In this document: positions 44,419-58,029 of the stretch, in pieces
How the letters are laid out: each line of letters opens with the position of its first letter
How positions within the stretch are numbered: the stretch's first letter is position 1
Assembly: GCF_001624705.1 (NCBI RefSeq)
Contig: NZ_JSEO01000001.1
Location: forward strand, 408,307 to 472,306
From: Marinomonas sp. SBI8L
Lineage (GTDB): Bacteria; Pseudomonadota; Gammaproteobacteria; Pseudomonadales; Marinomonadaceae
Direction: 5' to 3'
Length of the DNA stretch: 64,000 nt
Position numbers and translations under genes: made by a program
The notes under the pieces: generated by a model
What the model saw: the letters and a program-made list of their open reading frames with translations, nothing else
The model's database searches: none
What the model was told of the DNA's origin: nothing

Positions 44419-46050
44419 ATGTCACACGCCCCTATTCTTGAGGTCAAAAGCCTCTCTATTAGTTTTGCCTTAACCCAAGGCACATTGGATGCTGTTAAAA
44501 ATTTAAGCTTTGAACTTTACAAGGGAGAAACCCTAGCGATTGTTGGCGAATCCGGTAGTGGTAAATCGGTTTCAAGTAATGCCCTGATGCAACTTTTACC
44601 TAAGAACGCCAGCATCAAGGCAGAGTCTAGTATTGTCTTTGAAGGTGAAGAGATCTTATCCAAATCCGAAAAAGACATGCGTCAGATTCGTGGGGATAAA
44701 ATTGGCATGATCTTCCAAGAGCCCATGACCTCACTTAACCCTTATTTGAAGGTTGGCACTCAAGTCGCTGAGGCCATGTTATGCCATCGCTCTGTTTCTA
44801 AAAAAGTGGCAAAAGCTAAAGTATTAGAACTCTTTAACCTAGTACATCTCCCCTTTCCTGAACAAGCTTATGGTAAATACCCACATGAGTTTTCCGGCGG
44901 GCAATTACAACGCATCATGATCGCTATGGCGCTTATCAACGAGCCAGACATCTTGATAGCAGACGAACCTACCACAGCTTTGGATGTGACAGTACAGGCA
45001 GAAGTATTAAACCTGATTAAAGAAGTTCAGACTAAAATGGGTATGGCTGTGCTCTTTATCACCCATGATTTAGGTGTGGTCAAGCACCTTGCCGATAGAG
45101 TCTTAGTCATGTGTAAGGGCGAACTAGTGGAGCAAGGGGAAACAACAAGCCTGTTTGAAAATCCGCAGCTTCCCTATACTAAGATGCTAATCGACTCGAC
45201 ACCAAGAGGCCAAAAGGATGAGCCACCTAAAAATGCAACCGAGTTACTTAAAGCCAACGACATTAAGGTGAAATACCATATCGGCACTCAGCTCATTAGC
45301 CGTAAGAAGGAATACTTTGAAGCCGTTAAAGGCCTCTCATTAAATTTAAAACAAGGTGAAACCCTAGGCATAGTGGGCGAATCTGGTTCAGGTAAATCCA
45401 CCCTAGGCAGAGCCTTAATTGGCTTATTACCATCAAGTGGCCAAATAGAATTTAAAGGCCAAGATGTTAGCAAACTCAGCAAAAAAGACAGATTTGATCT
45501 TAAAAAAGATATTCAAGTCGTCTTCCAAGACCCTTATGGTTCCCTTTCACCACGTATGACTGTAGGCGAAATTATCACCGAAGGGCTTACGGTTCATCGT
45601 CCTGAATTATCTAAAGCAGAACGCATGCAAAAAGCCCGTAAAGCGTTAGAGGAAGTTCGTTTAGAAGCTCACTCCATCAATCGTTATCCCCATGAGTTTT
45701 CGGGTGGGCAAAGGCAACGTATCGCTATTGCCCGCGCTTTGATTCTAGAGCCTTCTTTTATCTTGTTAGATGAACCCACCTCAGCCCTTGACCGCTCAGT
45801 CCAGCTAACAGTCATCGACTTACTGAAGAATATTCAAAAGCAGCACAATATTGGCTTCTTGTTTATCAGCCACGACTTAAGCGTGGTGAAAGCTTTGTCT
45901 GACCGAGTAATGGTGATGCAAAAAGGGGAAGTGATGGAAGAAGGCTCAGCTGAAGAGGTTTTCAAGAATCCAAAAAGTAGCTATACCCAAAAACTCATTG
46001 CCGCATCTTTTGACCTTGAGCCTGAGATTAATGAAGGCAAGGTTGCTTAA
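44419..46050 (+). CDS. Duplicated ABC transporter ATPase of the peptide/nickel (YejF/DppDF) type
   Basis: A 543-residue protein with two complete ATPase domains in one chain. Each has Walker A GESGSGKS (about residues 45 and 323), a signature (SGGQLQR and SGGQRQR), and Walker B ([12 protein letters not shown] and [11 protein letters not shown]), plus the oligopeptide-type C-terminal region. Such fused DppD-DppF-like subunits energise importers of peptides or microcin-like compounds. No permease or binding protein gene is adjacent, so it must work with components elsewhere. Confidence 0.9.
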
Positions 46051-46184
46051 GTTTCAGATATTAAAGAACTTATAAGCAACCGATTAGTTCTACTTAAACA
46101 AATACCGCCCAAGCTAATCAGTTGAAGGATTCGCAGCTATACTAAAACCTTAACTAGGCAAGCGAATCCTTTAGCTTTGGAGTC

Positions 46185-46496
46185 ATGATGAAACTTAGTC
46201 AATTAGAGCAATACTCAGAGATAGAAAAGCTTATTTTTAATAGCTTGGACCCTGCTTTATATACGGTTAGCGCCCTTATTTCAGGGGGAGATGATGCTGA
46301 AGAGCACATGATTACAGATGAATCTGAGATAAATTTAAAGGGTAACAATGTGCTCAGCTTACAAAAACAGCTCCGTAAGGTTAAAGCGGCTAAGCATGTA
46401 ATAAGACACACCAGTGCTTATGATGAGATGATTGGCGGCCCACTTAACGCCACCAACGAAATGGAAGTGCCCGTTGGAGACAGTAAGCTGTATTAA
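46185..46496 (+). CDS. DUF6482-like small protein
   Basis: A 103-residue protein. The C-terminal stretch VIRHTSAYDEMIGGPLNATNEMEVPVGD resembles DUF6482 proteins, which carry a V(H/R)xxxxDEM motif near the end; the family role is unknown. There is no signal peptide or membrane segment. The start could be Met1 or Met2. It stands alone between the dual ATPase gene and the guanidine riboswitch. Confidence 0.6.
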   Translation: MMKLSQLEQYSEIEKLIFNSLDPALYTVSALISGGDDAEEHMITDESEINLKGNNVLSLQKQLRKVKAAKHVIRHTSAYDEMIGGPLNATNEMEVPVGDSKLY

Positions 46497-46756
46497 CCAG
46501 CCTTAACTAAGGCTTAGCAACGGGTTTTATATGCCTAAAAACGCCTATAAAACTTGCACTATAACAGCACACACCGACACACTCACGCCCAAAATAAAGT
46601 CAAAAAAGTAAGCTTTTTATTCGAAAAACACGCTAAAACCCCGCATTTACGACTTTTAAAAACTTGGCATCTAACTTGCTAAATCTAAGAACAGGTAATC
46701 TTGGCGATGGCTAAAATAGCCTATCAAACGCCTGAACATACAATTTGCAATAGTAT
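46497..46756. other. Region upstream of the guanidine operon
   Basis: 260 non-coding bases, followed by the riboswitch leader. GTTTTATA and TATAAAAC near 46523-46552 form a weak stem. TACAAT at 46739-46744 is a possible -10 box just before the aptamer; a matching -35 is not obvious. Confidence 0.4.
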
Positions 46757-46757
46757 A

Positions 46758-46857
46758 GCTAGGGTTCCGATTTTGAAAAAAGTGTCTGGTCCGAGAGCTA
46801 TCGACCTCACCTGATATTCTCAGTGAAGGTTACACGGAGGGATAAAAGCCCGGGAGA
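46758..46857 (+). ncRNA. Guanidine-I riboswitch (ykkC aptamer)
   Basis: The conserved ykkC primary motifs occur in order and spacing: CTAGGGTTCCG (46759-46769), CTGGTCCGAGAGC (46786-46798), TACACGGAGGGATAAAAGCCCGGGAGA (46831-46857, split here in description: ACACGGAGGGATAAAAGCCC is its core). This aptamer class binds guanidinium and commonly precedes urea carboxylase-type operons. The first gene starts 60 bases downstream with GGGAG at 46906-46910. I see no strong intrinsic terminator between aptamer and ATG, so control of initiation of translation is as likely as attenuation. Confidence 0.95.
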
Positions 46858-46916
46858 ATCAGTTGGCATTAGCCAAGATTGCTCTTACGTAACCATTAAT
46901 CACTTGGGAGTTCCAA

Positions 46917-47966
46917 ATGAAAAAACTTACCACCAGCTTATTATTAAGTGCATCTCTTGTTGTTGGGGCGTTAAACGCGCCGATTGTCCATGCCAAAGAA
47001 GACTTTAAGGTGTGTTGGTCTATCTATGTCGGTTGGATGCCTTGGGAATATGGTAGCCAATCCGGCATAGTGCAAAAATGGGCGGACAAGTACGACATCA
47101 ATATCGATGTTGTGCAGTTCAATGATTATGTCGAATCTATGAATCAATACACAGCCGGTGAATTTGATGCTTGCACCATGGCTAACATAGATGCTCTGAC
47201 AATTCCTGCTGCTGGCGGCGTTGATTCTACCGCCCTAATCGTCGGCGACTTCTCCAATGGCAACGATGCCGTCATCTTAAAAGACGGTGAATCTCTTAGC
47301 GATGCTAAAGGGCAAAACATTAACCTTGTTGAATTAAGTGTTTCCCATTACTTATTGGCACGTGGTTTAAACAGTGTTGGCCTTTCAGAACGCGATGTCA
47401 GAGTGGTAAATACCTCAGATGCCGACCTTGTCGCAGCATTTACTACCAGTGATGTCACCGCTGTTTCCACTTGGAATCCATTAGTGAGTGAAATTCTTGA
47501 TATGCCGAATAGCAACAAGGTATTTGATAGCTCTCAGATCCCAGGAGAAATCATAGACACCTTGATTGTGAATACAGAGGTTTTAAACCAGCACCCTAAA
47601 TTAGGTAAAGCCCTAGTCGGTGCTTGGTACGAAATCATGGACAAAATGAAGCAAGAAGAATCCGTTCGCGAACATATGGGTAAAGCCTCTGGTACTGACT
47701 TGTCTGGATTCGAAAGCCAACTTGCCTCAACCAAAATGTTCTACCAAGCAAAAGACGCTGTCGAATTTGTCAAAAGTCCGGCGCTAAAGGACACAATGCA
47801 ATACGTTGCTGAGTTCTCTTTCGACCATGGACTATTGGGTGATGGTGCAGCAGACGCTGGCTTTATAGGAATAGAAACACCAAGTGGTGTCTTCGGGGAT
47901 AAGCACAATATCAAATTACGTTTTGATCCTAGCTACATGGAAATGGCAGCCAAAGGCGATCTCTAA
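46917..47966 (+). CDS. Guanidine/urea-carboxylase-associated ABC transporter substrate-binding protein
   Basis: A 349-residue periplasmic binding protein of the NMT1/TauA/NrtA type. The signal peptide ends at VHA-KED (about residue 26). The mature protein has KVCWSIYVGWMPWEYGSQSG, DACTMANIDALTIPAAGGVDSTA, and a type II PBP fold, and matches the family found only beside urea carboxylase genes. The substrate is most likely guanidine or guanidinium, given the riboswitch and enzymes, but urea is not excluded. It is the first gene of the operon. Confidence 0.9.
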   Translation: MKKLTTSLLLSASLVVGALNAPIVHAKEDFKVCWSIYVGWMPWEYGSQSGIVQKWADKYDINIDVVQFNDYVESMNQYTAGEFDACTMANIDALTIPAAGGVDSTALIVGDFSNGNDAVILKDGESLSDAKGQNINLVELSVSHYLLARGLNSVGLSERDVRVVNTSDADLVAAFTTSDVTAVSTWNPLVSEILDMPNSNKVFDSSQIPGEIIDTLIVNTEVLNQHPKLGKALVGAWYEIMDKMKQEESVREHMGKASGTDLSGFESQLASTKMFYQAKDAVEFVKSPALKDTMQYVAEFSFDHGLLGDGAADAGFIGIETPSGVFGDKHNIKLRFDPSYMEMAAKGDL

Positions 47967-48035
47967 TCCAATCTTTTTTTAAACACGCAGAGTAAGCCAT
48001 GAGCTTACTCTCACCCTTAAATTAGAGAGAAAGAT

Positions 48036-48851
48036 ATGAAACGCTGGATAAACAAAACACCCTCTAAAACCTTGGCATTTGTATTAGGTGTGATCCCATT
48101 TATTCTTGTCATGGCCTTGTATCAATGGGGTTCTGATGCGCGTAAAGCTGAAAACTCTAACGATAAACTTTTACCGAGTGTCGGCCAATTTTATAGCGCG
48201 ATAGATAGACTTGCCTTTACTCCTAGTAAGCGCACTGGCGAATACATATTCTGGAAAGACACAGTAAGCAGCTTAAAACGCTTATTGATGGGGGTCGCGT
48301 GTGCGGCGGCAATTGCCTTGGTATTAGGCTTGATAACAGGGGCGATTCCTTTAATGGCGGCTAATCTCAGCCCTATTATCACCACCCTCTCACTGATTCC
48401 TCCTATGGCGGTATTACCTTTACTCTTCATTGTGTTTGGGCTTGGAGAGCTATCTAAAGTCATGCTTATCATAGTGGGAATTACGCCATTCTTGATCCGT
48501 GACCTTTATCAGAAAACAAAGGAAATCCCTCAAGAGCAGCTCGTTAAAGCGCAAACGTTAGGTGCCAACTCAGTACAGCTGATTAACCGTGTTTTATTAC
48601 CGCAAATTTTGCCCAGATTACTTGATGCACTGCGCTTAAGTTTAGGTACAGCGTGGTTATTTTTGATTGCAGCTGAAGCTATTGCCGCCACAGAAGGTCT
48701 GGGTTATCGCATATTTTTAGTACGTCGATACCTCTCGATGGACATCATTCTTCCCTACGTCATGTGGATTACCTTTTTAGCTTTCTTATTAGATTGGCTA
48801 TTGGTACATGCCAGTAAAAAGGCGTTCCCCTGGTATCACAGCGCTAAGTAG
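48036..48851 (+). CDS. ABC transporter permease (TauC-like) of the guanidine operon
   Basis: A 271-residue inner-membrane permease with six hydrophobic segments and the EAA loop typical of BPD permeases (EQLVKAQTLGANSVQLINRVLLPQILPRLLDALR, about 168-202) for ATPase coupling. It lies between the binding protein and ATPase genes and shares their orientation; spacing to the ATPase is 8 bases. It should carry the solute, probably guanidine, across the inner membrane. Confidence 0.9.
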   Translation: MKRWINKTPSKTLAFVLGVIPFILVMALYQWGSDARKAENSNDKLLPSVGQFYSAIDRLAFTPSKRTGEYIFWKDTVSSLKRLLMGVACAAAIALVLGLITGAIPLMAANLSPIITTLSLIPPMAVLPLLFIVFGLGELSKVMLIIVGITPFLIRDLYQKTKEIPQEQLVKAQTLGANSVQLINRVLLPQILPRLLDALRLSLGTAWLFLIAAEAIAATEGLGYRIFLVRRYLSMDIILPYVMWITFLAFLLDWLLVHASKKAFPWYHSAK

Positions 48852-48859
48852 AGGTAATT

Positions 48860-49690
48860 ATGACTAAACAAAATAACGCGCAACCAGCCAATAAAACAGA
48901 TGAATCTGCCCAAACTCAGATTGAATTTAATCATGTGGCTAAGTCCTACGGTGAAAATCTAGTACTAGATAATATTAATTGCGAAGTAAAACGAGGGGAA
49001 TTCATCACCATGGTCGGCACATCTGGCTGTGGTAAGAGCACCTTTTTAAACATGCTACTCGGCACAGTGGCCCATTCTAAAGGGGATATCTTATTAGAAG
49101 GTAAACCTATAGTTGCGGAACCGAGTCCAGATCGAGGCATTGTTTTTCAAAAGTACTCTGTCTTCCCTCACTTGAGCGTGCGTGAAAATGTTGCCATTTC
49201 AAAAGAGTTTGAAGCGAGTCCAGTATTAGGTCGGCTATTTGGCGAGAGACGTAAACAAGCCTTAACTGAAACAGATGAATGGCTCGAAGCCGTTGGGCTA
49301 CTCGCCGCAAAAGACAAGTACCCACACGAACTTTCTGGTGGCATGCAACAAAGGCTAGCCATTGCTCAAGCGCTAATTAAACACCCCAAAGTGTTGCTAC
49401 TAGACGAACCATTCGGCGCCCTTGATCCGGGCATCCGAAAAGACATGCATAAGTTGGTGTTAGAGCTTTGGAAGAAGTATCAACTCACCATTTTTATGGT
49501 GACCCATGATCTAAACGAAGGCTTCTATTTAGGTACTCGCTTATGGGTATTTGATAAAACGCGGCACGATCCACATGCCCCACATCGTTATGGCAGTACG
49601 ATTACCTTTGATCTGCCTATTGGTAAAACGGATGAAGCAAGCTTTGTAAAAATCGAAAAGTCCTTAGAGTCAAATCGACTCTCAGCTTAA
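48860..49690 (+). CDS. ABC transporter ATPase (TauB/SsuB-like) of the guanidine operon
   Basis: A 276-residue ATPase. Walker A is GTSGCGKS (about 53-60), the Q-loop is FQKYSVFPHL, the signature LSGGMQQR (about 157), Walker B is VLLLDEPFGALD (about 176), and the switch His is in VTHDLNEG. It energises the permease upstream. A C-terminal extension with RHDPHAPHRYGSTITFDLP is specific to this subfamily. Co-transcription with its neighbours is clear from tight spacing. Confidence 0.92.
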   Translation: MTKQNNAQPANKTDESAQTQIEFNHVAKSYGENLVLDNINCEVKRGEFITMVGTSGCGKSTFLNMLLGTVAHSKGDILLEGKPIVAEPSPDRGIVFQKYSVFPHLSVRENVAISKEFEASPVLGRLFGERRKQALTETDEWLEAVGLLAAKDKYPHELSGGMQQRLAIAQALIKHPKVLLLDEPFGALDPGIRKDMHKLVLELWKKYQLTIFMVTHDLNEGFYLGTRLWVFDKTRHDPHAPHRYGSTITFDLPIGKTDEASFVKIEKSLESNRLSA

Positions 49691-49749
49691 AGCTCAACCT
49701 TAACCTTTAACCTAACCCAATACTTCAACTTAAAGAGTAAATTGATAAA

Positions 49750-50487
49750 ATGAAAAATAGTTTGCAAAGTTTACTTAAAGATAAGCACTATCAAACTCAC
49801 ATCCCTGGTGCGAGCCACTGGTCTACCATTATTCGAAAAGGCACTGAACTGCGCCTAAAAGACATAGAAGGTGGCGCAAATGTTGGTATGTTGTTTTATA
49901 ACCCAAGTATCTTAAGTGAAAAATACAACGCACCAGATACTCTAAAATGCCAACACACATTCAAACTCACCCAAGGCCACTGTCTATACAGCGAAATGGG
50001 CCGCATCTTTTGTTCTATCACATCTGATAGTTTTGGCTGGCATGAAACCGTTTGCGGTACTTCACATGCAAAGCACATAGAAGAAAGCTGGGGCAAACGT
50101 GACTATCAAGGGGACCACAACCTTTGGCGTCAAAATGGCTTCGATAGCTTTTTAGTGGAACTCGCTAAATACAACCTCAGCAAACAAGACCTTTGTGCCA
50201 ATGTAAATTGGTTTAGCCAAGTCAGTGCCGACGAAGCGGGCAAACTCGCTCTAACAAGACATAGCCAAGCTGGGGACGAAGTCGTATTAAGATTCGAAAT
50301 GGACACACTGGTCGTATTGCATACCTGCCCTCACCCACTTAACCAAGCAAAAGAATACCCAAACAAACCTGTTGCTATCAGCTTGAGTCAAGCCGAAACA
50401 ATGCATGATGACGATGAGTGCCTGAACCACTGCCCAGAAAATCGTCGCGGTTTTGAAAACAACGCGTTATACCACTTTGGTTTATAG
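49750..50487 (+). CDS. Urea amidolyase-associated protein 1 (carboxyguanidine deiminase subunit, DUF1989)
   Basis: A 245-residue cytoplasmic DUF1989 protein. Conserved patches are [58 protein letters not shown], and [18 protein letters not shown], with Cys and His residues that can bind metal. In characterised systems this and the next protein form carboxyguanidine deiminase (CgdAB), which converts N-carboxyguanidine to allophanate and ammonia. Here the assignment follows family and operon position. Confidence 0.9.
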
Positions 50488-50495
50488 GAGCCACC

Positions 50496-51134
50496 ATGAT
50501 TAAAGCAAGCTTATTAAACGTAGAAGACGCTAAATTCTCACAATCTATCGATGCTGGTGATTACTTTTTTCACTGTATCAAGGCAGGCGAAACCATACGC
50601 CTTGTTGACCTTAAAGGTAATCAAGCAGCCGATACCCTATTTTATAATGCCAATGATGTCAGCGAACGCTACAGCGCCATGGACACAGTACGTGAACAAA
50701 GTGCGTTATATCTAACAACACACTCTGTTTTAAAAACCAATTTAAACAGAGACATGCTCGAAATCGTCGCAGATACCTGTGGTCGTCATGACACTGTTGG
50801 CGGCGCCTGTGCCACTGAATCAAATACAGTGAGGTATGACTTGGAAAAACGTTGCATGCATGCCTGTCGTGATAGCTGGATGTTAGCCATTCAAGAAAAT
50901 GAAGAGTATGGATTGAGCAAAGCGGATATCACTCACAACATCAACTTTTTCATGAATGTGCCAGTCACTCAAGAGGGTAAATTAACCTTTGAAGATGGTA
51001 TCTCAGCACCGGGTAAGTACGTTGAATTAAAGGCAAAAATGGATACCTTGGTATTAATTTCAAATTGTCCGCAATTAAACAACCCATGTAATGGTTATGA
51101 CCCCACCCCGATTCAGGTCTTGGTCTGGTCTTAG
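50496..51134 (+). CDS. Urea amidolyase-associated protein 2 (carboxyguanidine deiminase subunit, DUF1989)
   Basis: A 212-residue paralogue of the preceding gene product. It shares [52 protein letters not shown], and [14 protein letters not shown]. The two genes are separated by 8 bases with GGAG before the ATG, so they should be translated together. It is expected to be the partner subunit of carboxyguanidine deiminase. A second riboswitch-like element lies between its stop and the carboxylase gene. Confidence 0.9.
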
Positions 51135-51197
51135 GATAAACCGTATTTCTATAAACCCATTAGCCCATTTGCATTAACGCTATTTTTTGCATTTTTT

Positions 51198-51241
51198 AGT
51201 CAGGACGACCTGATTAATGTATTTATTCTCGGGACGACCCG
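51198..51241 (+). ncRNA. Guanidine-II riboswitch (mini-ykkC)
   Basis: Two short hairpins, each with an ACGA tetraloop, lie just before the carboxylase gene. The first has AGTCAGG paired with CCTGATT (51198-51215, one G-T wobble). The second has CGGG paired with CCCG (51230-51241). The 14-base linker is in the normal range. This is the mini-ykkC consensus (two stem-loops with ACGR loops). The ribosome site GGAG (51249-51252) follows the second hairpin by 7 bases, and the ATG is at 51258, so guanidine would probably act on translation of the carboxylase. Confidence 0.88.
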
Positions 51242-51257
51242 CAAGTTTGGAGCCGTT

Positions 51258-54200
51258 ATGTTTAACACGGTAATGATTGCAAATCGAGGTGCAATAGCCA
51301 CTCGCATTATTCGCACACTTAAAAAATTAGGTATTCAATCCCTTGCTGTTTATCACCAAGAAGATAAAGACTCATTACATGTTCAGCAAGCTGATATTGC
51401 TGTATGTCTGGGTGATAACAGTGTCGCAGACACCTACCTTAATATTGAAAAACTCATTCAGATTGCCAAACAACACCAAGTAGATGCCATTCATCCAGGC
51501 TATGGCTTTTTAAGTGAAAATACTGAGTTCGTGAGTCAATGTGAACAAGCAAACATCGTTTTCATTGGCCCGACAAGCACACAAATGAACCTATTTGGTT
51601 TGAAACACCTAGCACGGGATGCAGCAGAACAAGCCGGCGTACCGCTTGTACCAGGCTCACCATTACTAACCGAACGAAACGACGCCATACATTGGGCTAA
51701 TAAGATTGGCTACCCTATCATGCTAAAAAGCACCGCTGGCGGTGGTGGTATTGGAATGCAAGCCTGCCTCAATCAAGATGAAATGCTTATTGCCTGGGAA
51801 AGCGTTAAAAGGTTAGGTGAAAACTACTTCTCTAACGATGGCGTCTTCTTAGAAAAACTCATAAAAAATGCACGACATATCGAAGTACAAATTTTTGCCA
51901 ATGGACAAGGACAAGCCATTAGCCTTGGAGAACGCGATTGCTCAGCCCAGCGCCGTAATCAAAAAGTTGTCGAAGAAACGCCAGCACACAATTTAACTCA
52001 TGACGTCCGTGAACAGCTCCATAACACCGCAGAGCGCTTAATGGCATCGGTTAATTATCGTAATGCCGGTACCGTTGAGTTTATCTTTGATCATGATGCT
52101 AATGCATTTTACTTTTTAGAAGTAAATACGCGATTACAGGTTGAGCATGGCGTAACGGAAGCCGTTTGGGGAGTCGATCTGGTTGATTGCATGATCAAGC
52201 AAGCAGCAGGAGAAATGGAAGATTTACAGGCGTTTAAAGCACAGCTCACACCCTCAGGCCATAGTATTCAAGCCCGTATTTATGCTGAAAACCCAGCACA
52301 AGACTTCCTACCCAGTAGCGGTTTATTGTCAGAGGTAAACTGGCCACAAAAAGATAACTTACGTATTGATACTTGGATTGAGTCAGGTATCCAAGTACCC
52401 GCTCTATTTGACCCTATGTTGGCAAAAGTCATCACCACAGCGGATGATAGACAAACCGCAATCAGCGAATTAGAACAGGCCCTTGATCACAGCACCCTCT
52501 ATGGCATACAAACTAACAAGGCTTATGTTCAAGCTATTCTAAATGGCCCTATGCATCAAGGTGGCCAACTATTTACCAAGGATCTGGCTGATTTTAAAAT
52601 CCAGACACCTAGTTTTTCTGTATTAAGTGGCGGCACCCAGACAAGTATTCAAGACTATCCCGGCAGGCAAGCACACTGGCATGTTGGCGTACCACCTTCT
52701 GGCCCAATGGACTCACTTAGCTTTCGCTTAGCCAATGAATTATTGGGGAATAACCTTGATGCTGCCGCCTTAGAAATAACCTTAAATGGCCCTAGACTTA
52801 AGTTTCATACATCTTGTGATGTTGCTCTAATTGGTGCCGAATTTGATGTGAGTTTGGATGGCAGCCCAGTTGCAATGAACCAAGTCATTCACCTAGATGC
52901 AAACCAAACCCTAAGCATAGGAAAAGTCAAAGGAACTGGCGCGCGTTGTTATCTTGCCGTTAAAAATGGCATCCAATGTCCTGACTATTTAGGCTCAAAA
53001 TCTACCTTTACCTTAGGCCAGTTTGGTGGCCATGTGGGCCGAGCACTGCGTACTGGAGACGTGATAGAACTCGCTAATATAATATCTAATAAAAAGACGA
53101 ATAAAGAGACTAATCAAAAAACGAATACACAGAGCAGTCTGAAAACTCAGCCCGTTTTATCCGCAAACTTTCAGCAGCAAGCCAAGCAAACCTTTAATCC
53201 AGAAATCTCGCAATTAAGGGTTATCTACGGGCCCCATGGCGCACCAGATTTCTTTACCGAAACAGATATAAAGACCTTCTTTGAGCATACTTGGGAAGTG
53301 CATTACAACTCCTCTCGTACAGGTGTTCGTCTTATCGGGCCCAAGCCTGAATGGGCACGAGAAAGCGGCGGCGAAGCTGGCATGCACCCTTCGAACATTC
53401 ATGATAATGCCTATGCTTTTGGTACCGTGGATTTTACGGGTGACATGCCCGTTATTCTTGGTCCAGATGGCCCATCATTGGGTGGATTTGTTTGCCCTGC
53501 TACTGTCATTAGTGCCGACCTTTGGAAGCTAGGCCAATTAAAAGCCGGTAGTAAAATTCAATTTATTCCCGTGACACACGCTCAGGCTATTTCCCTCGAA
53601 AAAGCGCAAATAAGCGACATACGTGAGTTAAGCTTGGTGGCTGAATCAGTATCCTTATCTAAGTCAGAGTCAGAGCAAGTAACTAGTCGCGGCATTAACC
53701 CAGCCGCTTTAGCTTCCCCCAAAGTACATCAAGGGAAAATTGGGAATGACGAGGTAATTTGCCGTTTAGCGGGAGATCATTTCTTACTTGTCGAATTAGG
53801 TCCATTAGCGCTTGATATTCCACGTCGTTTTAAAGTTCACGCCCTCATGTTATGGCTAGAAAACTATAAAAAAACGCATCCAGAATCTGGTCTAAGAGAA
53901 TTAACACCTGGCATTCGCTCTCTTCAAATTCACTTTGACTCTCAAGTGATGAGTCTAGACAAGCTCACTCGTTTAATTGATCAGGCTTGTCATTATGTGG
54001 CCACTACCGAAAACCTCACCTTACCTTCTCGCACAGTGTATTTGCCACTAAGTTGGAATGATGAAGCCTGCCAATTAGCCATAGAAAAATACATGCAATC
54101 GGTACGTAAAGACGCGCCTTGGTGTCCAAGTAACCTAGAGTTTATCCGCCGTATTAATGGCCTAAAAGATATTCAAGCGGTGAAAGACACTGTCTTTAGC

Positions 54201-55004
54201 GCGGATTATCTGGTGATGGGATTAGGAGATGTTTATTTAGGTGCACCCGTTGCAACGCCATTGGACCCACGCCATCGACTGGTCACAACAAAGTACAACC
54301 CTGCTCGTACTTGGACCGCTGAAAACTCAGTTGGTATTGGTGGGGCTTATATGTGTGTTTACGGGATGGAAGGCCCAGGTGGGTATCAATTTGTGGGTCG
54401 TACGTCACAAATGTGGAATCGCTACCGTAAAACCAAAGAGTTTACCCAACCTTGGCTGCTACGCTTTTTTGATCAAATAAAATTCTATGAAGTAAGCCCA
54501 GAAGAGCTAGCACACATTCGAGAAGCATTACCAAAAGGCCAAGTATCCCTAAGGATAGAAGAAACACAGTTTAGCCTAAATGATTACCAAAATTTCTTGG
54601 ACGCTAATCAAACTCAAATGACGGAATTTGTTAAAGCCAGAGATGAGGCCTTCGATGAAGAACTCGCCCGTTGGAAGGAGAATGGTCAACTTACCTATGA
54701 GGTGGTTGAACCAGAGACTAGCCAAGATGATGAGCAGGCCTTAGCAGAACTTATCTCAGCCGAAAACATTAATGCTATCGATAGCCCTGTATCGGGCAAT
54801 GTTTGGCAGTGCAAAGTAGAAGAAGGCCAAACCGTAAAAGCAGGCGACGTATTAATGGTTTTGGAGTCCATGAAAATGGAAATAGAAATCTATGCCAGCT
54901 GTGATGGCCAAGTAAGAAGCTTATTAAAGCAGCAAGGACAATCGGTTCAGTCAGGACAAGCCCTCGCCTTAATAGAACTCGCGCCAGTCACTGAACTTGC
55001 CTAA
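51258..55004 (+). CDS. Guanidine carboxylase / urea carboxylase (biotin-dependent)
   Basis: A 1248-residue multidomain enzyme. In order: biotin carboxylase with ATP-grasp (residues 1-450; TAGGGGIGMQ, FLEVNTRLQVEHGVTE), a KipA/AHS2 domain (about 460-610), an Asn/Lys/Thr-rich linker (about 612-640), further carboxyltransferase parts with YNSSRTGVRLIGP and TKYNPARTW, the AHS1 domain, and a C-terminal biotinyl domain with MVLESMKMEIEI, whose biotin-bearing Lys is residue 1206. It carboxylates guanidine (or urea) with ATP and bicarbonate. Operon proteins and both riboswitches favour guanidine. GGAG at 51249 is its ribosome site. Confidence 0.92.
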   Translation: MFNTVMIANRGAIATRIIRTLKKLGIQSLAVYHQEDKDSLHVQQADIAVCLGDNSVADTYLNIEKLIQIAKQHQVDAIHPGYGFLSENTEFVSQCEQANIVFIGPTSTQMNLFGLKHLARDAAEQAGVPLVPGSPLLTERNDAIHWANKIGYPIMLKSTAGGGGIGMQACLNQDEMLIAWESVKRLGENYFSNDGVFLEKLIKNARHIEVQIFANGQGQAISLGERDCSAQRRNQKVVEETPAHNLTHDVREQLHNTAERLMASVNYRNAGTVEFIFDHDANAFYFLEVNTRLQVEHGVTEAVWGVDLVDCMIKQAAGEMEDLQAFKAQLTPSGHSIQARIYAENPAQDFLPSSGLLSEVNWPQKDNLRIDTWIESGIQVPALFDPMLAKVITTADDRQTAISELEQALDHSTLYGIQTNKAYVQAILNGPMHQGGQLFTKDLADFKIQTPSFSVLSGGTQTSIQDYPGRQAHWHVGVPPSGPMDSLSFRLANELLGNNLDAAALEITLNGPRLKFHTSCDVALIGAEFDVSLDGSPVAMNQVIHLDANQTLSIGKVKGTGARCYLAVKNGIQCPDYLGSKSTFTLGQFGGHVGRALRTGDVIELANIISNKKTNKETNQKTNTQSSLKTQPVLSANFQQQAKQTFNPEISQLRVIYGPHGAPDFFTETDIKTFFEHTWEVHYNSSRTGVRLIGPKPEWARESGGEAGMHPSNIHDNAYAFGTVDFTGDMPVILGPDGPSLGGFVCPATVISADLWKLGQLKAGSKIQFIPVTHAQAISLEKAQISDIRELSLVAESVSLSKSESEQVTSRGINPAALASPKVHQGKIGNDEVICRLAGDHFLLVELGPLALDIPRRFKVHALMLWLENYKKTHPESGLRELTPGIRSLQIHFDSQVMSLDKLTRLIDQACHYVATTENLTLPSRTVYLPLSWNDEACQLAIEKYMQSVRKDAPWCPSNLEFIRRINGLKDIQAVKDTVFSADYLVMGLGDVYLGAPVATPLDPRHRLVTTKYNPARTWTAENSVGIGGAYMCVYGMEGPGGYQFVGRTSQMWNRYRKTKEFTQPWLLRFFDQIKFYEVSPEELAHIREALPKGQVSLRIEETQFSLNDYQNFLDANQTQMTEFVKARDEAFDEELARWKENGQLTYEVVEPETSQDDEQALAELISAENINAIDSPVSGNVWQCKVEEGQTVKAGDVLMVLESMKMEIEIYASCDGQVRSLLKQQGQSVQSGQALALIELAPVTELA

Positions 55005-55031
55005 CTTATACACGTTTAAAGGACATATCCC

Positions 55032-56819
55032 ATGTTTAACTTAAATATTATTGCACTTAAAAATGCCTATAAAAATAATGACACCACAGCCAAAGAACTT
55101 ATTTTTTCGCTCCGACAACAAGCCCTAGAGCAGGCCGAATATAATGCCTGGATTACCTTATTGGATGAGACAAAATTAACTGAATACCTAAGCTATTTAG
55201 AAGGTAAAACCATAGATGAACTCCCTTTATATGGCGTACCATTTGCCATCAAAGACAACATAGACCTAGCCGGCGTACCAACCACAGCGGCCTGTCCAGA
55301 CTTTGAATACACACCAAGCAAAAGCGCCTTTGTGGTAGAGCAATTAATGAAAGCTGGCGCGATTCCACTAGGTAAAACGAACCTAGACCAATTCGCCACA
55401 GGTCTAGTCGGTATGCGAAGCCCCTATGGTGAAGGTGTAAACGCCTTTAATACTGATTATGTGTCAGGTGGTTCAAGCGCAGGCTCGGCCATAAGCACCG
55501 CCTTAGGCCAAGTAAGTTTTGCACTTGGCACAGACACAGCCGGCAGTGGCCGTGTACCAGCCGCATTAAATAACCTCATCGGTCACAAACCAACAAAAGG
55601 CTTATTCAGTAACTCTGGCTTGGTACCTGCTTGCTTAAGCTTGGATTGCATCACAGTATTCGCGCTAAATACACAAGATGCGGCTTTGGTCACCAGCATT
55701 GCAGGCCAATATGACGAAGCAGATAGCTATGCAAGACCTAACAAACCAGAAAACCACTTACGTTACTTTGAACCTAAGCTACCTCAAAACTTCACTTTTG
55801 GTGTACCCGCTGAATTAGATTTTTATCAAAACCCAGAAACGAAAGCCTTGTTTGAACAAACCGTAGAGCGTTTAGAAAACCTTGGTGGCACTAAAGTCAC
55901 CATAGATTTTGTGCCTTTTACCACAGCAGCAAAACTCCTGTACGAAGGCCCTTGGGTGGCAGAACGTTGGTTAGCAACCCATGATGTAAAACGTGAATCC
56001 ATGTTACCTGTGATTCAAACCATTATAGGTTCAGCAGAAGGTAAAACCGCAGCCGATGCCTTCAGCGCACAATATGCCTTACAAAGCTTTAAGAAAGTGT
56101 GCGATGCCCAAGTAGATGCCGTTGATTTTATGCTCACACCCACTTGCCCAACTCAATTCACCCGTGAAGCCTTGCGACAGGAGCCAATCAAATACAACTC
56201 GGTTTTAGGCACTTATACCAACTTTATGAATTTATTGGATTACGCTGCAACCAGTATTCCTGTTGGCTTTACCACAAATAAAGTAAGTTGGGGTGTAACT
56301 TTCTTTAGCCATGCATTTAGAGATATCGAACTCTTAAGTTATGCTGGAGCCTTACATCAAGCCCTAGATTTACCCCAAGGTGCGAGTGAATTTCCCTTAC
56401 AAACTTATGAGTCTACCGCCATTGCAGCCCCACAAAAAAATATCGATGTGGTCGTCTGCGGCGCTCATTTAGAAGGTTTTCCCCTTAATTGGCAGCTCAC
56501 TGAACGCAACGCCACACTCGTTAGCAAAACACTCAGTGCTGCCAAGTATCAACTCTATGCGTTACCAGATGGTAAACGCCCAGCGATGATACGTGATGAT
56601 GAAGCGGGTCAAGCCATTAAAGTCGAAGTCTGGTCTATGCCGATAGAGCACTTTGGCTCTTTTGTTGCTGGCATCCCTGCACCGCTTGGTATCGGTAAGG
56701 TAGAGCTTGCAGATGGTAACTGGTATTGCGGTTTTATGAGTGAGGGGAATGCAACATTAGATGCTACCAAGATTACAGAGTTTGGTGGTTGGGCAAATTA
56801 TATTCAATCTAAGAAATAG
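55032..56819 (+). CDS. atzF: Allophanate hydrolase
   Basis: A 595-residue amidase-signature enzyme that cleaves allophanate, releasing ammonia; the resulting N-carboxycarbamate decomposes to carbon dioxide and ammonia. The Ser-cisSer-Lys triad is visible: Lys in PFAIKDNIDLAG (about 74), cis-Ser in SGGSSAGSAIS (about 148), and nucleophile Ser in GTDTAGSGRVPAAL (about 172). The C-terminal domain (from about 480) is the extra domain needed for the second step, with VVCGAHLEGFPLNWQLTER. It ends the operon. Confidence 0.92.
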   Translation: MFNLNIIALKNAYKNNDTTAKELIFSLRQQALEQAEYNAWITLLDETKLTEYLSYLEGKTIDELPLYGVPFAIKDNIDLAGVPTTAACPDFEYTPSKSAFVVEQLMKAGAIPLGKTNLDQFATGLVGMRSPYGEGVNAFNTDYVSGGSSAGSAISTALGQVSFALGTDTAGSGRVPAALNNLIGHKPTKGLFSNSGLVPACLSLDCITVFALNTQDAALVTSIAGQYDEADSYARPNKPENHLRYFEPKLPQNFTFGVPAELDFYQNPETKALFEQTVERLENLGGTKVTIDFVPFTTAAKLLYEGPWVAERWLATHDVKRESMLPVIQTIIGSAEGKTAADAFSAQYALQSFKKVCDAQVDAVDFMLTPTCPTQFTREALRQEPIKYNSVLGTYTNFMNLLDYAATSIPVGFTTNKVSWGVTFFSHAFRDIELLSYAGALHQALDLPQGASEFPLQTYESTAIAAPQKNIDVVVCGAHLEGFPLNWQLTERNATLVSKTLSAAKYQLYALPDGKRPAMIRDDEAGQAIKVEVWSMPIEHFGSFVAGIPAPLGIGKVELADGNWYCGFMSEGNATLDATKITEFGGWANYIQSKK

Positions 56820-56841
56820 CGCTGTTTTACTAATAAACAAG

Positions 56842-56879
56842 AGTAGCAAAGCCACCCCGAACCTGCTGGTTTTGCTACT
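56842..56879 (+). terminator. Terminator of the guanidine operon
   Basis: AGTAGCAAAGCCA and TGGTTTTGCTACT form a 13-bp stem (one G-T pair) around a 12-base loop, 23 bases after the allophanate hydrolase stop. The T tract after it is weak. Confidence 0.75.
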
Positions 56880-57132
56880 AGCTGTTTATCAAACCTAACA
56901 TTTCTTATCTCTCTTTTTACCTTAACCTCTTTTCTTTAATCAATTGATAACACGAAAAAGTGTGCTCGTAACGACTAAATAGATAACATTCAAGGTGTCA
57001 TTTACTTTATAAACAACTAAAAAAGTAAGTAATAAATTAAAAGCTATTAGAAAGCGCTCAATGTCACAAAAGCGATAGCATCACTTAATTTCTACTCTGT
57101 TTGGTTAGATAGCTGTTAGACAAGCCATCCGT
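56880..57132. other. Intergenic region between converging genes
   Basis: The 253 bases after the operon terminator are AT-rich and hold no ORF or clear structure. Confidence 0.4.
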
Positions 57133-58029
57133 TTATTTGAAGTTTTTTAAAAGTTCTGAGAGCTCGTCATATATAAGTCTCATCCTTTTATTCGACTTTA
57201 ACTCTCTGTGAGCGGTGATCCAAATCGGGAAAGAAGCAATGAATTCATCTTTAAATAATCTAACCATGTTTTCTTTTTCACGAGCAGCAATATCTAAACA
57301 AAAGCCGCACCCTAAACCTTCTTCGATTAATTCATAAATTAAGACATAACTATCAGTTCTAAGAGCAAAATCTTCATCATTAATGTCGAACCCACTTTTG
57401 TTTAAGCCATCTTTTATATCTGTAAAATTATCTTGCCCTATTAAATCAAAGCCCAACACAGCATCAAAGTCCTTTGCATTTACAGATGCCATAAGCTCTT
57501 TATATCGTGGATATTTTTTCGACACATAAAAGCCAATTTCTAGATTTAATATTCTCTTGGTAATTAAATCGTTTTGAGTGGGCCTCACCATTCTTAAAGC
57601 GATATCAGCCTTTCTTTCTAGTAGGTTTTCAACCTTATCCGAAGGGCTAATGATCAATTGAATTTGAGGGTATTTTTCGCGTAGCTTCCCCATTAACTGA
57701 GGCAAAATTTTTAAAGCGATAGTATTGCTTGCTGAAATCCTAACCGGGCCACTAACCACATTAGAACGCATGTCAGCAAGGCTAGAAATTGCCATTGCAT
57801 GAGAGTTCATCTGCTTTACTTCTTGTGCAAGCTCTAAACCGAATTCAGTTGCAATGTAACCTCTAGCGGTTCTATCAAATAATAAATTACCTAAATCTTT
57901 TTCTAATTGTTCAATATGTCTACCAACCGTTGGCTGTGATATTTTTAACTCTTGGGCGGCTTTAGACAAACTCTTTAATTCAATAACAGCAAGGAATGTC
58001 TTTAGTAACCCCCAATCTACATGATTCAT
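57133..58029 (-). CDS. LysR-family transcriptional regulator
   Basis: A 298-residue LTTR. The HTH is LKSLSKAAQELKISQPTVGRHIEQLEKDLGNLLFDRTARGY, and the effector domain opens with GPVRISASNTIALKILPQLM. It converges on the guanidine operon, so operon regulation is not implied; a broken Crp/Fnr gene lies divergent to the right. The signal is unknown. Confidence 0.88.
   Translation of the reverse strand: MNHVDWGLLKTFLAVIELKSLSKAAQELKISQPTVGRHIEQLEKDLGNLLFDRTARGYIATEFGLELAQEVKQMNSHAMAISSLADMRSNVVSGPVRISASNTIALKILPQLMGKLREKYPQIQLIISPSDKVENLLERKADIALRMVRPTQNDLITKRILNLEIGFYVSKKYPRYKELMASVNAKDFDAVLGFDLIGQDNFTDIKDGLNKSGFDINDEDFALRTDSYVLIYELIEEGLGCGFCLDIAAREKENMVRLFKDEFIASFPIWITAHRELKSNKRMRLIYDELSELLKNFK

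What the first reader, a model, noticed from the sequence alone, without database searches (positions are those of the whole stretch)
46758..51257. Two unrelated guanidine riboswitch classes in one operon
Seen: a complete ykkC (guanidine-I) aptamer before the first gene, and two ACGA-loop hairpins of mini-ykkC (guanidine-II) form in the 123-base gap before the carboxylase. Established: both classes bind guanidinium, and each usually occurs singly before guanidine genes. Inference: the leader sets import and deiminase levels, while the internal switch independently gates the large ATP- and biotin-consuming carboxylase, so the costly enzyme is made only when guanidine persists. This two-checkpoint layout is unusual, though I cannot say it is undescribed.
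Basis: partly seen in the sequence, partly recalled or inferred. Interest (0 to 1): 0.85.

Follow-up and report, generated by a model that had tools for sequence, protein, structure and literature searches.

The report
Guanidine-eating operon with two riboswitches
A marine bacterium carries a set of genes for eating guanidine that is probably switched on by guanidine through two different RNA sensors, an arrangement already described in other bacteria; what may be new is how the first sensor is wired to its gene.

Summary
Rfam models find a guanidine-I aptamer at 46748-46858 (83.4 bits, cut-off 63) and a guanidine-II aptamer at 51197-51241 (41.3 bits, cut-off 32), each the only one found in the genome, in a complete guanidine carboxylase operon. 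"Unusual" is wrong: a review describes this layout in enterobacteria, Sinn et al. 2025 probed both RNAs of the same layout in Vreelandella boliviensis, and 66 of 73 related operons examined carry both (pattern or Rfam). The "costly enzyme only when guanidine persists" logic is untested. Two additions: (1) a conserved sigma-54-type site with NtrC-type half-sites upstream suggests nitrogen starvation as a third input; sigma-54 control of this gene family is already predicted in print. (2) In this genus and in about half of the 75 leaders tested, a covarying long-range helix encloses the guanidine-I aptamer; its 3' strand can instead pair with the aptamer's end. Folding suggests a translational switch. 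The papers I could search did not show this helix; one says guanidine-I lacks a helix between its ends.

The parts
46555..46561 (+). NtrC-type half-site TGCACTA, 109 nt upstream of the sigma-54 site (motif recalled)
   Evidence: 14 of 17 Marinomonas operon leaders have a half-site within 200 nt upstream versus 1.8 in mononucleotide shuffles
46664..46679 (+). sigma-54 (-24/-12) promoter-like site TTGGCATCTAACTTGC
   Evidence: only match of TTGGCAY-N5-TTGC in the window, 0.10 expected; a site of this type in 17 of 17 Marinomonas operon leaders
46694..46705 (+). 5' strand of the long-range closing helix P0 (GGTAATCTTGGC)
46748..46858 (+). guanidine-I (ykkC) aptamer, RF00442
46817..46821 (+). part of the aptamer's P2 arm that pairs with the Shine-Dalgarno GGGAG in the ligand-free minimum-energy fold
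46854..46860 (+). 5' arm of the alternative hairpin P4 (GAGAATC, aptamer 3' end)
46872..46883 (+). strand X (GCCAAGATTGCT): 3' strand of P0; overlaps the 3' arm of P4 (46877-46884)
46906..46910 (+). Shine-Dalgarno GGGAG of the substrate-binding protein gene
46917..47966 (+). importer substrate-binding protein (TIGR03427; guanidine as cargo is inferred from the operon)
48036..48851 (+). ABC permease
48860..49690 (+). ABC ATPase
49750..50487 (+). CgdA, carboxyguanidine deiminase subunit (UAAP1, TIGR03425)
50496..51134 (+). CgdB, carboxyguanidine deiminase subunit (UAAP2, TIGR03424)
51197..51241 (+). guanidine-II (mini-ykkC) aptamer, RF01068, two ACGA-loop hairpins
51247..51252 (+). Shine-Dalgarno-like TTGGAG before the carboxylase
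51258..55004 (+). guanidine carboxylase (TIGR02712; Asp725 at the specificity position)
55032..56819 (+). allophanate hydrolase AtzF (TIGR02713)

Best explanation
This is a guanidine-assimilation operon of the known dual-riboswitch type, in Marinomonas. Shown by sequence: gene content, both aptamers, the sigma-54-type site, the carboxylase specificity residue. Inferred: NtrC with sigma-54 starts transcription near 46690 when nitrogen is short. Without guanidine the leader folds so that part of the aptamer's P2 arm covers the Shine-Dalgarno of the importer gene and the aptamer's 3' end pairs with strand X (hairpin P4). Guanidine stabilises the aptamer; strand X then pairs with the transcript's 5' end (helix P0) and the Shine-Dalgarno is partly freed, so importer (and, by coupling or polarity, CgdAB) is made. 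In the same message the guanidine-II switch separately raises translation of the carboxylase and perhaps of the allophanate hydrolase 27 nt downstream. Guanidine is carboxylated, deiminated to allophanate and hydrolysed to ammonia and CO2.
For: Aptamers and genes. Same layout elsewhere and in print. Sigma-54 and NtrC-type sites; RpoN and NtrC encoded in the genome. No + strand sigma-70-like site and no TTGGCAY-N5-TTGC site in the 51135-51257 gap. P0: 170 of 170 cells paired in 17 leaders, 3 of 10 pairs changed on both sides; P4: 102 of 102, 2 of 6 pairs changed on both sides, sharing strand X columns. Enforcing the aptamer in 17 leaders moves mean P0 probability from 0.20 to 0.76, mean Shine-Dalgarno openness from 0.28 to 0.55 and P4 from 0.79 to 0.22.
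Against: No experiment on this RNA. Folding is at 37 C without a ligand energy, and enforcing the aptamer frees its competitors by construction. In the window's leader GGGAG opens only in part: two of its G stay paired in both states, and the mean goes from 0.05 to 0.40. In 3 of 17 leaders (L038, L042, L045) P0 forms in both states and Shine-Dalgarno openness barely changes. Double changes in P0 and P4 come from three sequences, two of them close kin. The terminator scan lists a weak hairpin at 46863-46876 followed by GATTGCTCTT, in a list no longer than chance (15 versus 10.8 in shuffles), so attenuation or Rho-dependent termination is not excluded; class I is presumed transcriptional in V. 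boliviensis. The strand complementary to GGTTACAC is only weakly enriched over the 75 leaders: 22 versus 13.8 in shuffles, maximum 19. Full NtrC dyads occur in 1 of 17 Marinomonas leaders.
Confidence: 0.55

Rival explanations
1. Same operon, but the guanidine-I leader acts by transcription termination (intrinsic without a good U-run, or Rho-dependent), as presumed for V. boliviensis; P0 is then an antiterminator.
For: Class I is described as usually transcriptional and presumed so in V. boliviensis; four leaders in the class sample end in a GC stem plus U-run (L060, L062, L069, L085); L100, L104 and L127 have a U-run just after strand X; weak terminator-like hairpin in the window.
Against: Five T in a row lie between aptamer and gene in 9 of 75 leaders, in 3 of these 9 just after strand X; the window has none there.
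Confidence: 0.35
2. The two switches form a true two-threshold gate: the carboxylase is held back until guanidine is high.
For: Separate switch directly before the carboxylase; reported apparent KD for class II about twice that of class I in V. boliviensis.
Against: A two-fold KD difference is a small gap; the V. boliviensis paper reports the entire operon up on guanidine; class II may instead widen the ligand range to methylguanidine.
Confidence: 0.25
3. The internal guanidine-II copy is a leftover from a time when the carboxylase gene had its own promoter, with no separate role now.
For: Operons without a detected class II exist (7 of 73).
Against: Detected in 66 of 73 operons and in 17 of 17 Marinomonas operons (14 by search, 3 by eye), although the carboxylases of most other Marinomonas are only 58-60% identical to the window's.
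Confidence: 0.1

Closest known systems
Guanidine carboxylase operon of Vreelandella boliviensis (Sinn et al. 2025, PMC12508155)
   Same: Guanidine-I before the operon, guanidine-II between cgdB and gca, and ABC importer, CgdAB, carboxylase and allophanate hydrolase genes (passages; one section).
   Different: V. boliviensis has mgdH and mgdL between gca and atzF; here only 27 nt lie between those genes.
Enterobacterial guanidine operons (Raoultella, Erwinia, Klebsiella; review PMC12186494)
   Same: Importer and deiminase under class I, carboxylase and allophanate hydrolase under class II (passages).
   Different: Their sequences were not compared here.
PRPP riboswitch (ykkC subtype 2; PMC6031431)
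   Same: A helix P0 joins the two ends of a ykkC-fold aptamer; [quoted passage not shown]
   Different: There P0 is short, stacks on P3 and helps bind the ligand; here 42 nt separate the 5' strand and 13 nt the 3' strand from the aptamer match, and the paper says P0 is not present in guanidine-I.
Sigma-54 regulon predictions for COG3665, PMC12316311
   Same: Lists 102 sigma-54-regulated genes of this family in proteobacteria, 59% named urea carboxylase (two passages); that COG3665 is the CgdAB family is recalled.
   Different: 'guanidin' does not occur in the paper's main text, and 'riboswitch' occurs once, in the reference list.

Membership tests
Guanidine-I riboswitch (RF00442) | Covariance score above the family's cut-off | tested here: met
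   83.4 bits versus 63
Guanidine-I riboswitch (RF00442) | Binds guanidine, not a subtype-2 ligand | not testable with these tools
   needs in-line probing; gene context fits
Guanidine-II riboswitch (RF01068) | Two hairpins with ACGR loops, score above cut-off | tested here: met
   41.3 bits versus 32, both loops ACGA
Guanidine-II riboswitch (RF01068) | Loops bind guanidine and the Shine-Dalgarno is opened | not testable with these tools
   experiment needed
Guanidine carboxylase | TIGR02712 match plus Asp at K. lactis position 1330 | tested here: met
   1753.5 bits, cut-off 1303.85; Asp725 aligned with Asn1330
Guanidine carboxylase | Asp at K. lactis position 1584 | not tested
   the printed alignment was cut before this position
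Dual-riboswitch guanidine carboxylase operon | Class I before importer, class II between cgdB and gca, one strand | tested here: met
Sigma-54 / NtrC-controlled operon | -24/-12 site at a plausible start, upstream activator sites, RpoN and NtrC in the genome | tested here: inconclusive
   site, one half-site and both proteins found, no full NtrC dyad; dependence needs an experiment
Intrinsic-terminator guanidine-I expression platform | GC stem followed by a U-run between aptamer and gene | tested here: not met
   no run of five T between aptamer and start codon; only a weak 5-bp stem followed by GATTGCTCTT is listed

The most novel reading that the evidence does not exclude
Guanidine-I riboswitches of gammaproteobacterial guanidine operons share an undescribed expression platform: the first bases of the sigma-54 transcript pair across the whole aptamer with a strand just after it, in competition with a hairpin made from the aptamer's own end, gating translation instead of an intrinsic terminator.
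Probability: 0.4. Interest if true: 0.5.

Novelty: new member of a known kind. Interest (0 to 1): 0.33.

Why it matters
The dual layout itself is known, so this mainly extends it to Marinomonas and shows it to be common in the related operons sampled. The useful part is a testable picture of three inputs on one nitrogen-scavenging operon (nitrogen starvation plus two guanidine sensors) and a specific RNA helix that could explain how the first sensor works where no terminator is seen.

Tried and rejected
Rejected: chance match of either riboswitch (double ACGR hairpins in 0 of 3376 control chunks). Rejected: rarity of the layout. Rejected: a separate + strand sigma-70-like or sigma-54-like promoter in the 51135-51257 gap, by simple scans. 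Rejected: a conserved hairpin CACATGG/CCATGTG after the aptamer; by eye it does not hold in the window or in L044. Rejected: a short leader ORF ATG-TGT-AAC-TAA; by eye its start and stop are not conserved. Weak and not used as general: a strand complementary to GGTTACAC (22 of 75 versus 13.8). One search gave no result for minus-strand loci, which were not oriented; it was redone. RNAduplex energies allow very long loose duplexes and mix in base composition; they were replaced by a local helix score with shuffles and a shifted-segment control.

Results against the helix P0: in 14 of 75 leaders it has no support (p above 0.2) and in 37 of 75 p is above 0.05; only 8 of 75 exceed the 99th percentile of cross-species pairs. 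In the class sample, with a stricter ungapped score, only 7 of 28 scored leaders have 5 or fewer of 100 shuffles reaching the observed score (recounted); the 28 include four terminator-type leaders and several before other genes; a 29th locus (L082) was not scored.

Rows left out: 6 of 80 named loci (L134, L148, L149, L156, L162, L164) were not fully placed by my aptamer pattern and are missing from the 75-leader tests; Rfam finds guanidine-I in L134, L156 and L148 and not in L164; L149 and L162 were not checked with Rfam. Of 11 pattern-positive loci checked with Rfam, 7 passed the guanidine-II cut-off and 4 did not (L102, L109, L117, L158). Of 9 pattern-negative loci, 2 passed. In the tree, 69 of 90 carboxylase rows were used; rows under 900 aa and the Marinomonas duplicates L133 and L139 were left out.

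Full report
OBSERVATION. A scan of the whole window against Rfam 15 gives two hits at gathering thresholds: guanidine-I (RF00442) at 46748-46858 and guanidine-II (RF01068) at 51197-51241, both on the + strand. A more permissive scan of 45000-57000 adds six matches, all far below their families' cut-offs. In the genome, 5.19 Mb in 69 contigs, one copy of each is found. The genes after and between them are a TIGR03427 substrate-binding protein, an ABC permease and ATPase, UAAP1 and UAAP2 (CgdA, CgdB), a TIGR02712 carboxylase and an allophanate hydrolase. The carboxylase carries Asp725 where K. lactis urea amidolyase has Asn1330. A review (passages seen) and the methods of a Nature paper (passages seen) use this residue to separate guanidine from urea carboxylases. 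I conclude that this is a guanidine carboxylase operon.

IS THE LAYOUT UNUSUAL? No. [quoted passage not shown] PMC12508155 (passages; the section on genomic context) shows class I before the operon and class II before the carboxylase in Vreelandella boliviensis, with apparent KDs of 44 uM (I) and 93 uM (II); class II also bound methylguanidine. In the window's genus, 18 of 49 genomes have guanidine-I and 18 of 49 guanidine-II. Seventeen operons (window included) were read: 17 of 17 have guanidine-I; 14 of 17 have a guanidine-II match, two of these 14 (G021, G026) below the family's cut-off; the other 3 (G006, G016, G035) show two ACGG-loop hairpins by eye. In 369 genomes drawn from the class, 29 have guanidine-I, 27 guanidine-II, and by my reading of the coordinates 11 have both on one strand 3.4-5.2 kb apart, one of them (G242) with guanidine-II below the cut-off.

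Eighty loci (the best 80 of 574, the candidate list itself being cut short) encoding a relative of the importer's binding protein were fetched. The carboxylase gene is visible in 73. My patterns find guanidine-I in 70 of 73 (two of these, L148 and L149, by its core only), a double ACGR hairpin before the carboxylase in 64 of 73, and both in 62 of 73; the hairpin pattern occurs in 0 of 3376 control chunks of the same loci. Rfam adds guanidine-I in two loci (L134, L156) and guanidine-II in two (L145, L163), so both are found in 66 of 73 by pattern or Rfam. Of 11 pattern-positive loci rechecked, 7 passed Rfam's guanidine-II cut-off and 4 did not. The sample is chosen by similarity of the binding protein, so it speaks for operons of this kind, nearly all gammaproteobacterial, and not for all guanidine-I RNAs.

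GENUS.

PROMOTER. TTGGCATCTAACTTGC at 46664-46679 is the only match of TTGGCAY-N5-TTGC in the window, with 0.10 expected. A site of this type ends 60-83 nt before the CTAGGGTTCCG of the aptamer in 17 of 17 Marinomonas leaders. In 75 leaders (74 named plus the window) a strict form occurs in 34 versus 0.25 in shuffles and a relaxed form in 56 versus 2.45; 28 of the 34 strict hits start 60-120 nt before that point. NtrC-type half-sites (motif recalled) lie within 200 nt upstream in 14 of 17 Marinomonas leaders versus 1.8 in mononucleotide shuffles; in 48 other leaders with a relaxed sigma-54 site, dyads with up to 2 mismatches occur in 24 versus 1.85; such dyads are rare in Marinomonas (1 of 17). 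The genome encodes RpoN (503 bits) and an NtrC above the family's cut-off (758 bits). A PLoS One paper on sigma-54 regulons (two passages seen) already lists 102 sigma-54-regulated genes of COG3665, 59% of them named urea carboxylase; that COG3665 is the CgdAB family is recalled. The sigma-54 link is therefore not new as a prediction.

LEADER FOLD. In the Marinomonas alignment the predicted 5' end of the transcript (window 46694-46705) is complementary to a strand 13 nt beyond the aptamer match (46872-46883). Over 17 leaders all 170 cells of a 10-pair helix pair, and 3 of 10 pairs show changes on both sides; sliding the partner by 1-3 columns drops pairing to 38-59%. The same 3' strand also pairs with the aptamer's own 3' end (P4): 102 of 102 cells, 2 of 6 pairs changed on both sides, at two strand-X columns that also covary in P0. 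The double changes come from three sequences (the window with its close relative G036, and G034), so they are one or two evolutionary events. The wider test is stronger: over 75 leaders the helix score exceeds that of other species' partners (median 34.4 versus 23.6; 39 of 75 above the 95th percentile, 8 above the 99th), that of dinucleotide-shuffled partners (38 of 75 at p up to 0.05; 28 of 48 after removing similar leaders), and that of the segment further downstream (43 of 48). Fourteen of 75 give no support. In the class sample, with an ungapped score, 7 of 28 scored leaders stand out from shuffles (5 or fewer of 100), and four leaders with a classical terminator (L060, L062, L069, L085) do not. 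So P0 is well supported in this genus and in about half of the related leaders, and is not universal.

HOW IT MAY SWITCH. Unconstrained, the window leader (46690-46940) folds with 46817-46821 of the aptamer's P2 arm paired to the Shine-Dalgarno 46906-46910 and with P4 formed. With aptamer pairs enforced, P0 forms, and the last three bases of GGGAG open while its first two stay paired. Over 17 leaders, enforcing the aptamer moves mean P0 from 0.20 to 0.76, P4 from 0.79 to 0.22 and Shine-Dalgarno openness from 0.28 to 0.55 (window 0.05 to 0.40); 3 leaders keep P0 in both states. Five T in a row occur between aptamer and gene in 9 of 75 leaders and not in the window. I therefore favour translational control for this leader, with termination as the main rival; class I of V. 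boliviensis is presumed transcriptional. How the guanidine-II element opens the carboxylase's start was not modelled; its first hairpin is itself listed as terminator-like with a poor tail (51196-51217).

IS THE HELIX KNOWN? PMC6031431 (passages seen) says the PRPP aptamer's ends form a helix P0 that is not present in guanidine-I. Searches combining guanidine riboswitch terms with expression platform and terminator, Shine-Dalgarno and NtrC, RpoN, urea amidolyase and nitrogen limitation, operon and carboxylase, same operon, Marinomonas (no paper) and carboxyguanidine gave titles and abstract starts that do not describe such a helix. A further review, PMC7266159 (passages), did not describe it either in the passages shown. 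The library lacks most subscription papers, including two I tried, so this is not proof of novelty.

ORIGIN. In a quick tree of 69 carboxylases (of 90 rows) the 17 Marinomonas copies need two origins: the window and G036 group with two uncultured gammaproteobacterial loci (L086, L089; support 100), apart from the other 15. Separate acquisition of the operon is likely; deep paralogy is not excluded.

VERDICT. Observation confirmed; the layout is known and common among the operons sampled. The remaining interest lies in the leader helix and the combined nitrogen-plus-guanidine control.

Noticed in passing
window 51258-55004 and whole operon: The carboxylase groups with uncultured gammaproteobacterial loci L086 and L089 and with G036, not with the other 15 Marinomonas copies, which suggests a separate acquisition.
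   Followed up: partly
L052 (G025 contig 6), 787-894: A guanidine-I match with none of the operon's genes found by tblastn in the 12.9 kb examined and a changed core (GCCAGGGAG); looks like a leftover leader.
   Followed up: no
L145, L163, L124 (Pseudomonas), about 1.4 kb before the operon's aptamer: A second guanidine-I aptamer lies upstream of the operon's own copy.
   Followed up: no
L054, L055, L056 (G023, G039, G043): Guanidine-II copies in same-genus genomes with none of this operon's genes found nearby; the genes they control were not identified.
   Followed up: no
L100, L104, L127: In these leaders the strand after the aptamer is followed by a U-run, so the same layout may work as a terminator in some species.
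   Followed up: no
window 51196-51217: The first hairpin of the guanidine-II aptamer, with its T-rich tail, is itself listed as terminator-like by the simple scan; such hits are about as many as in shuffles.
   Followed up: no
window 57133-58029 (-): A LysR-type regulator gene faces the end of the operon; any link to guanidine is unknown.
   Followed up: no
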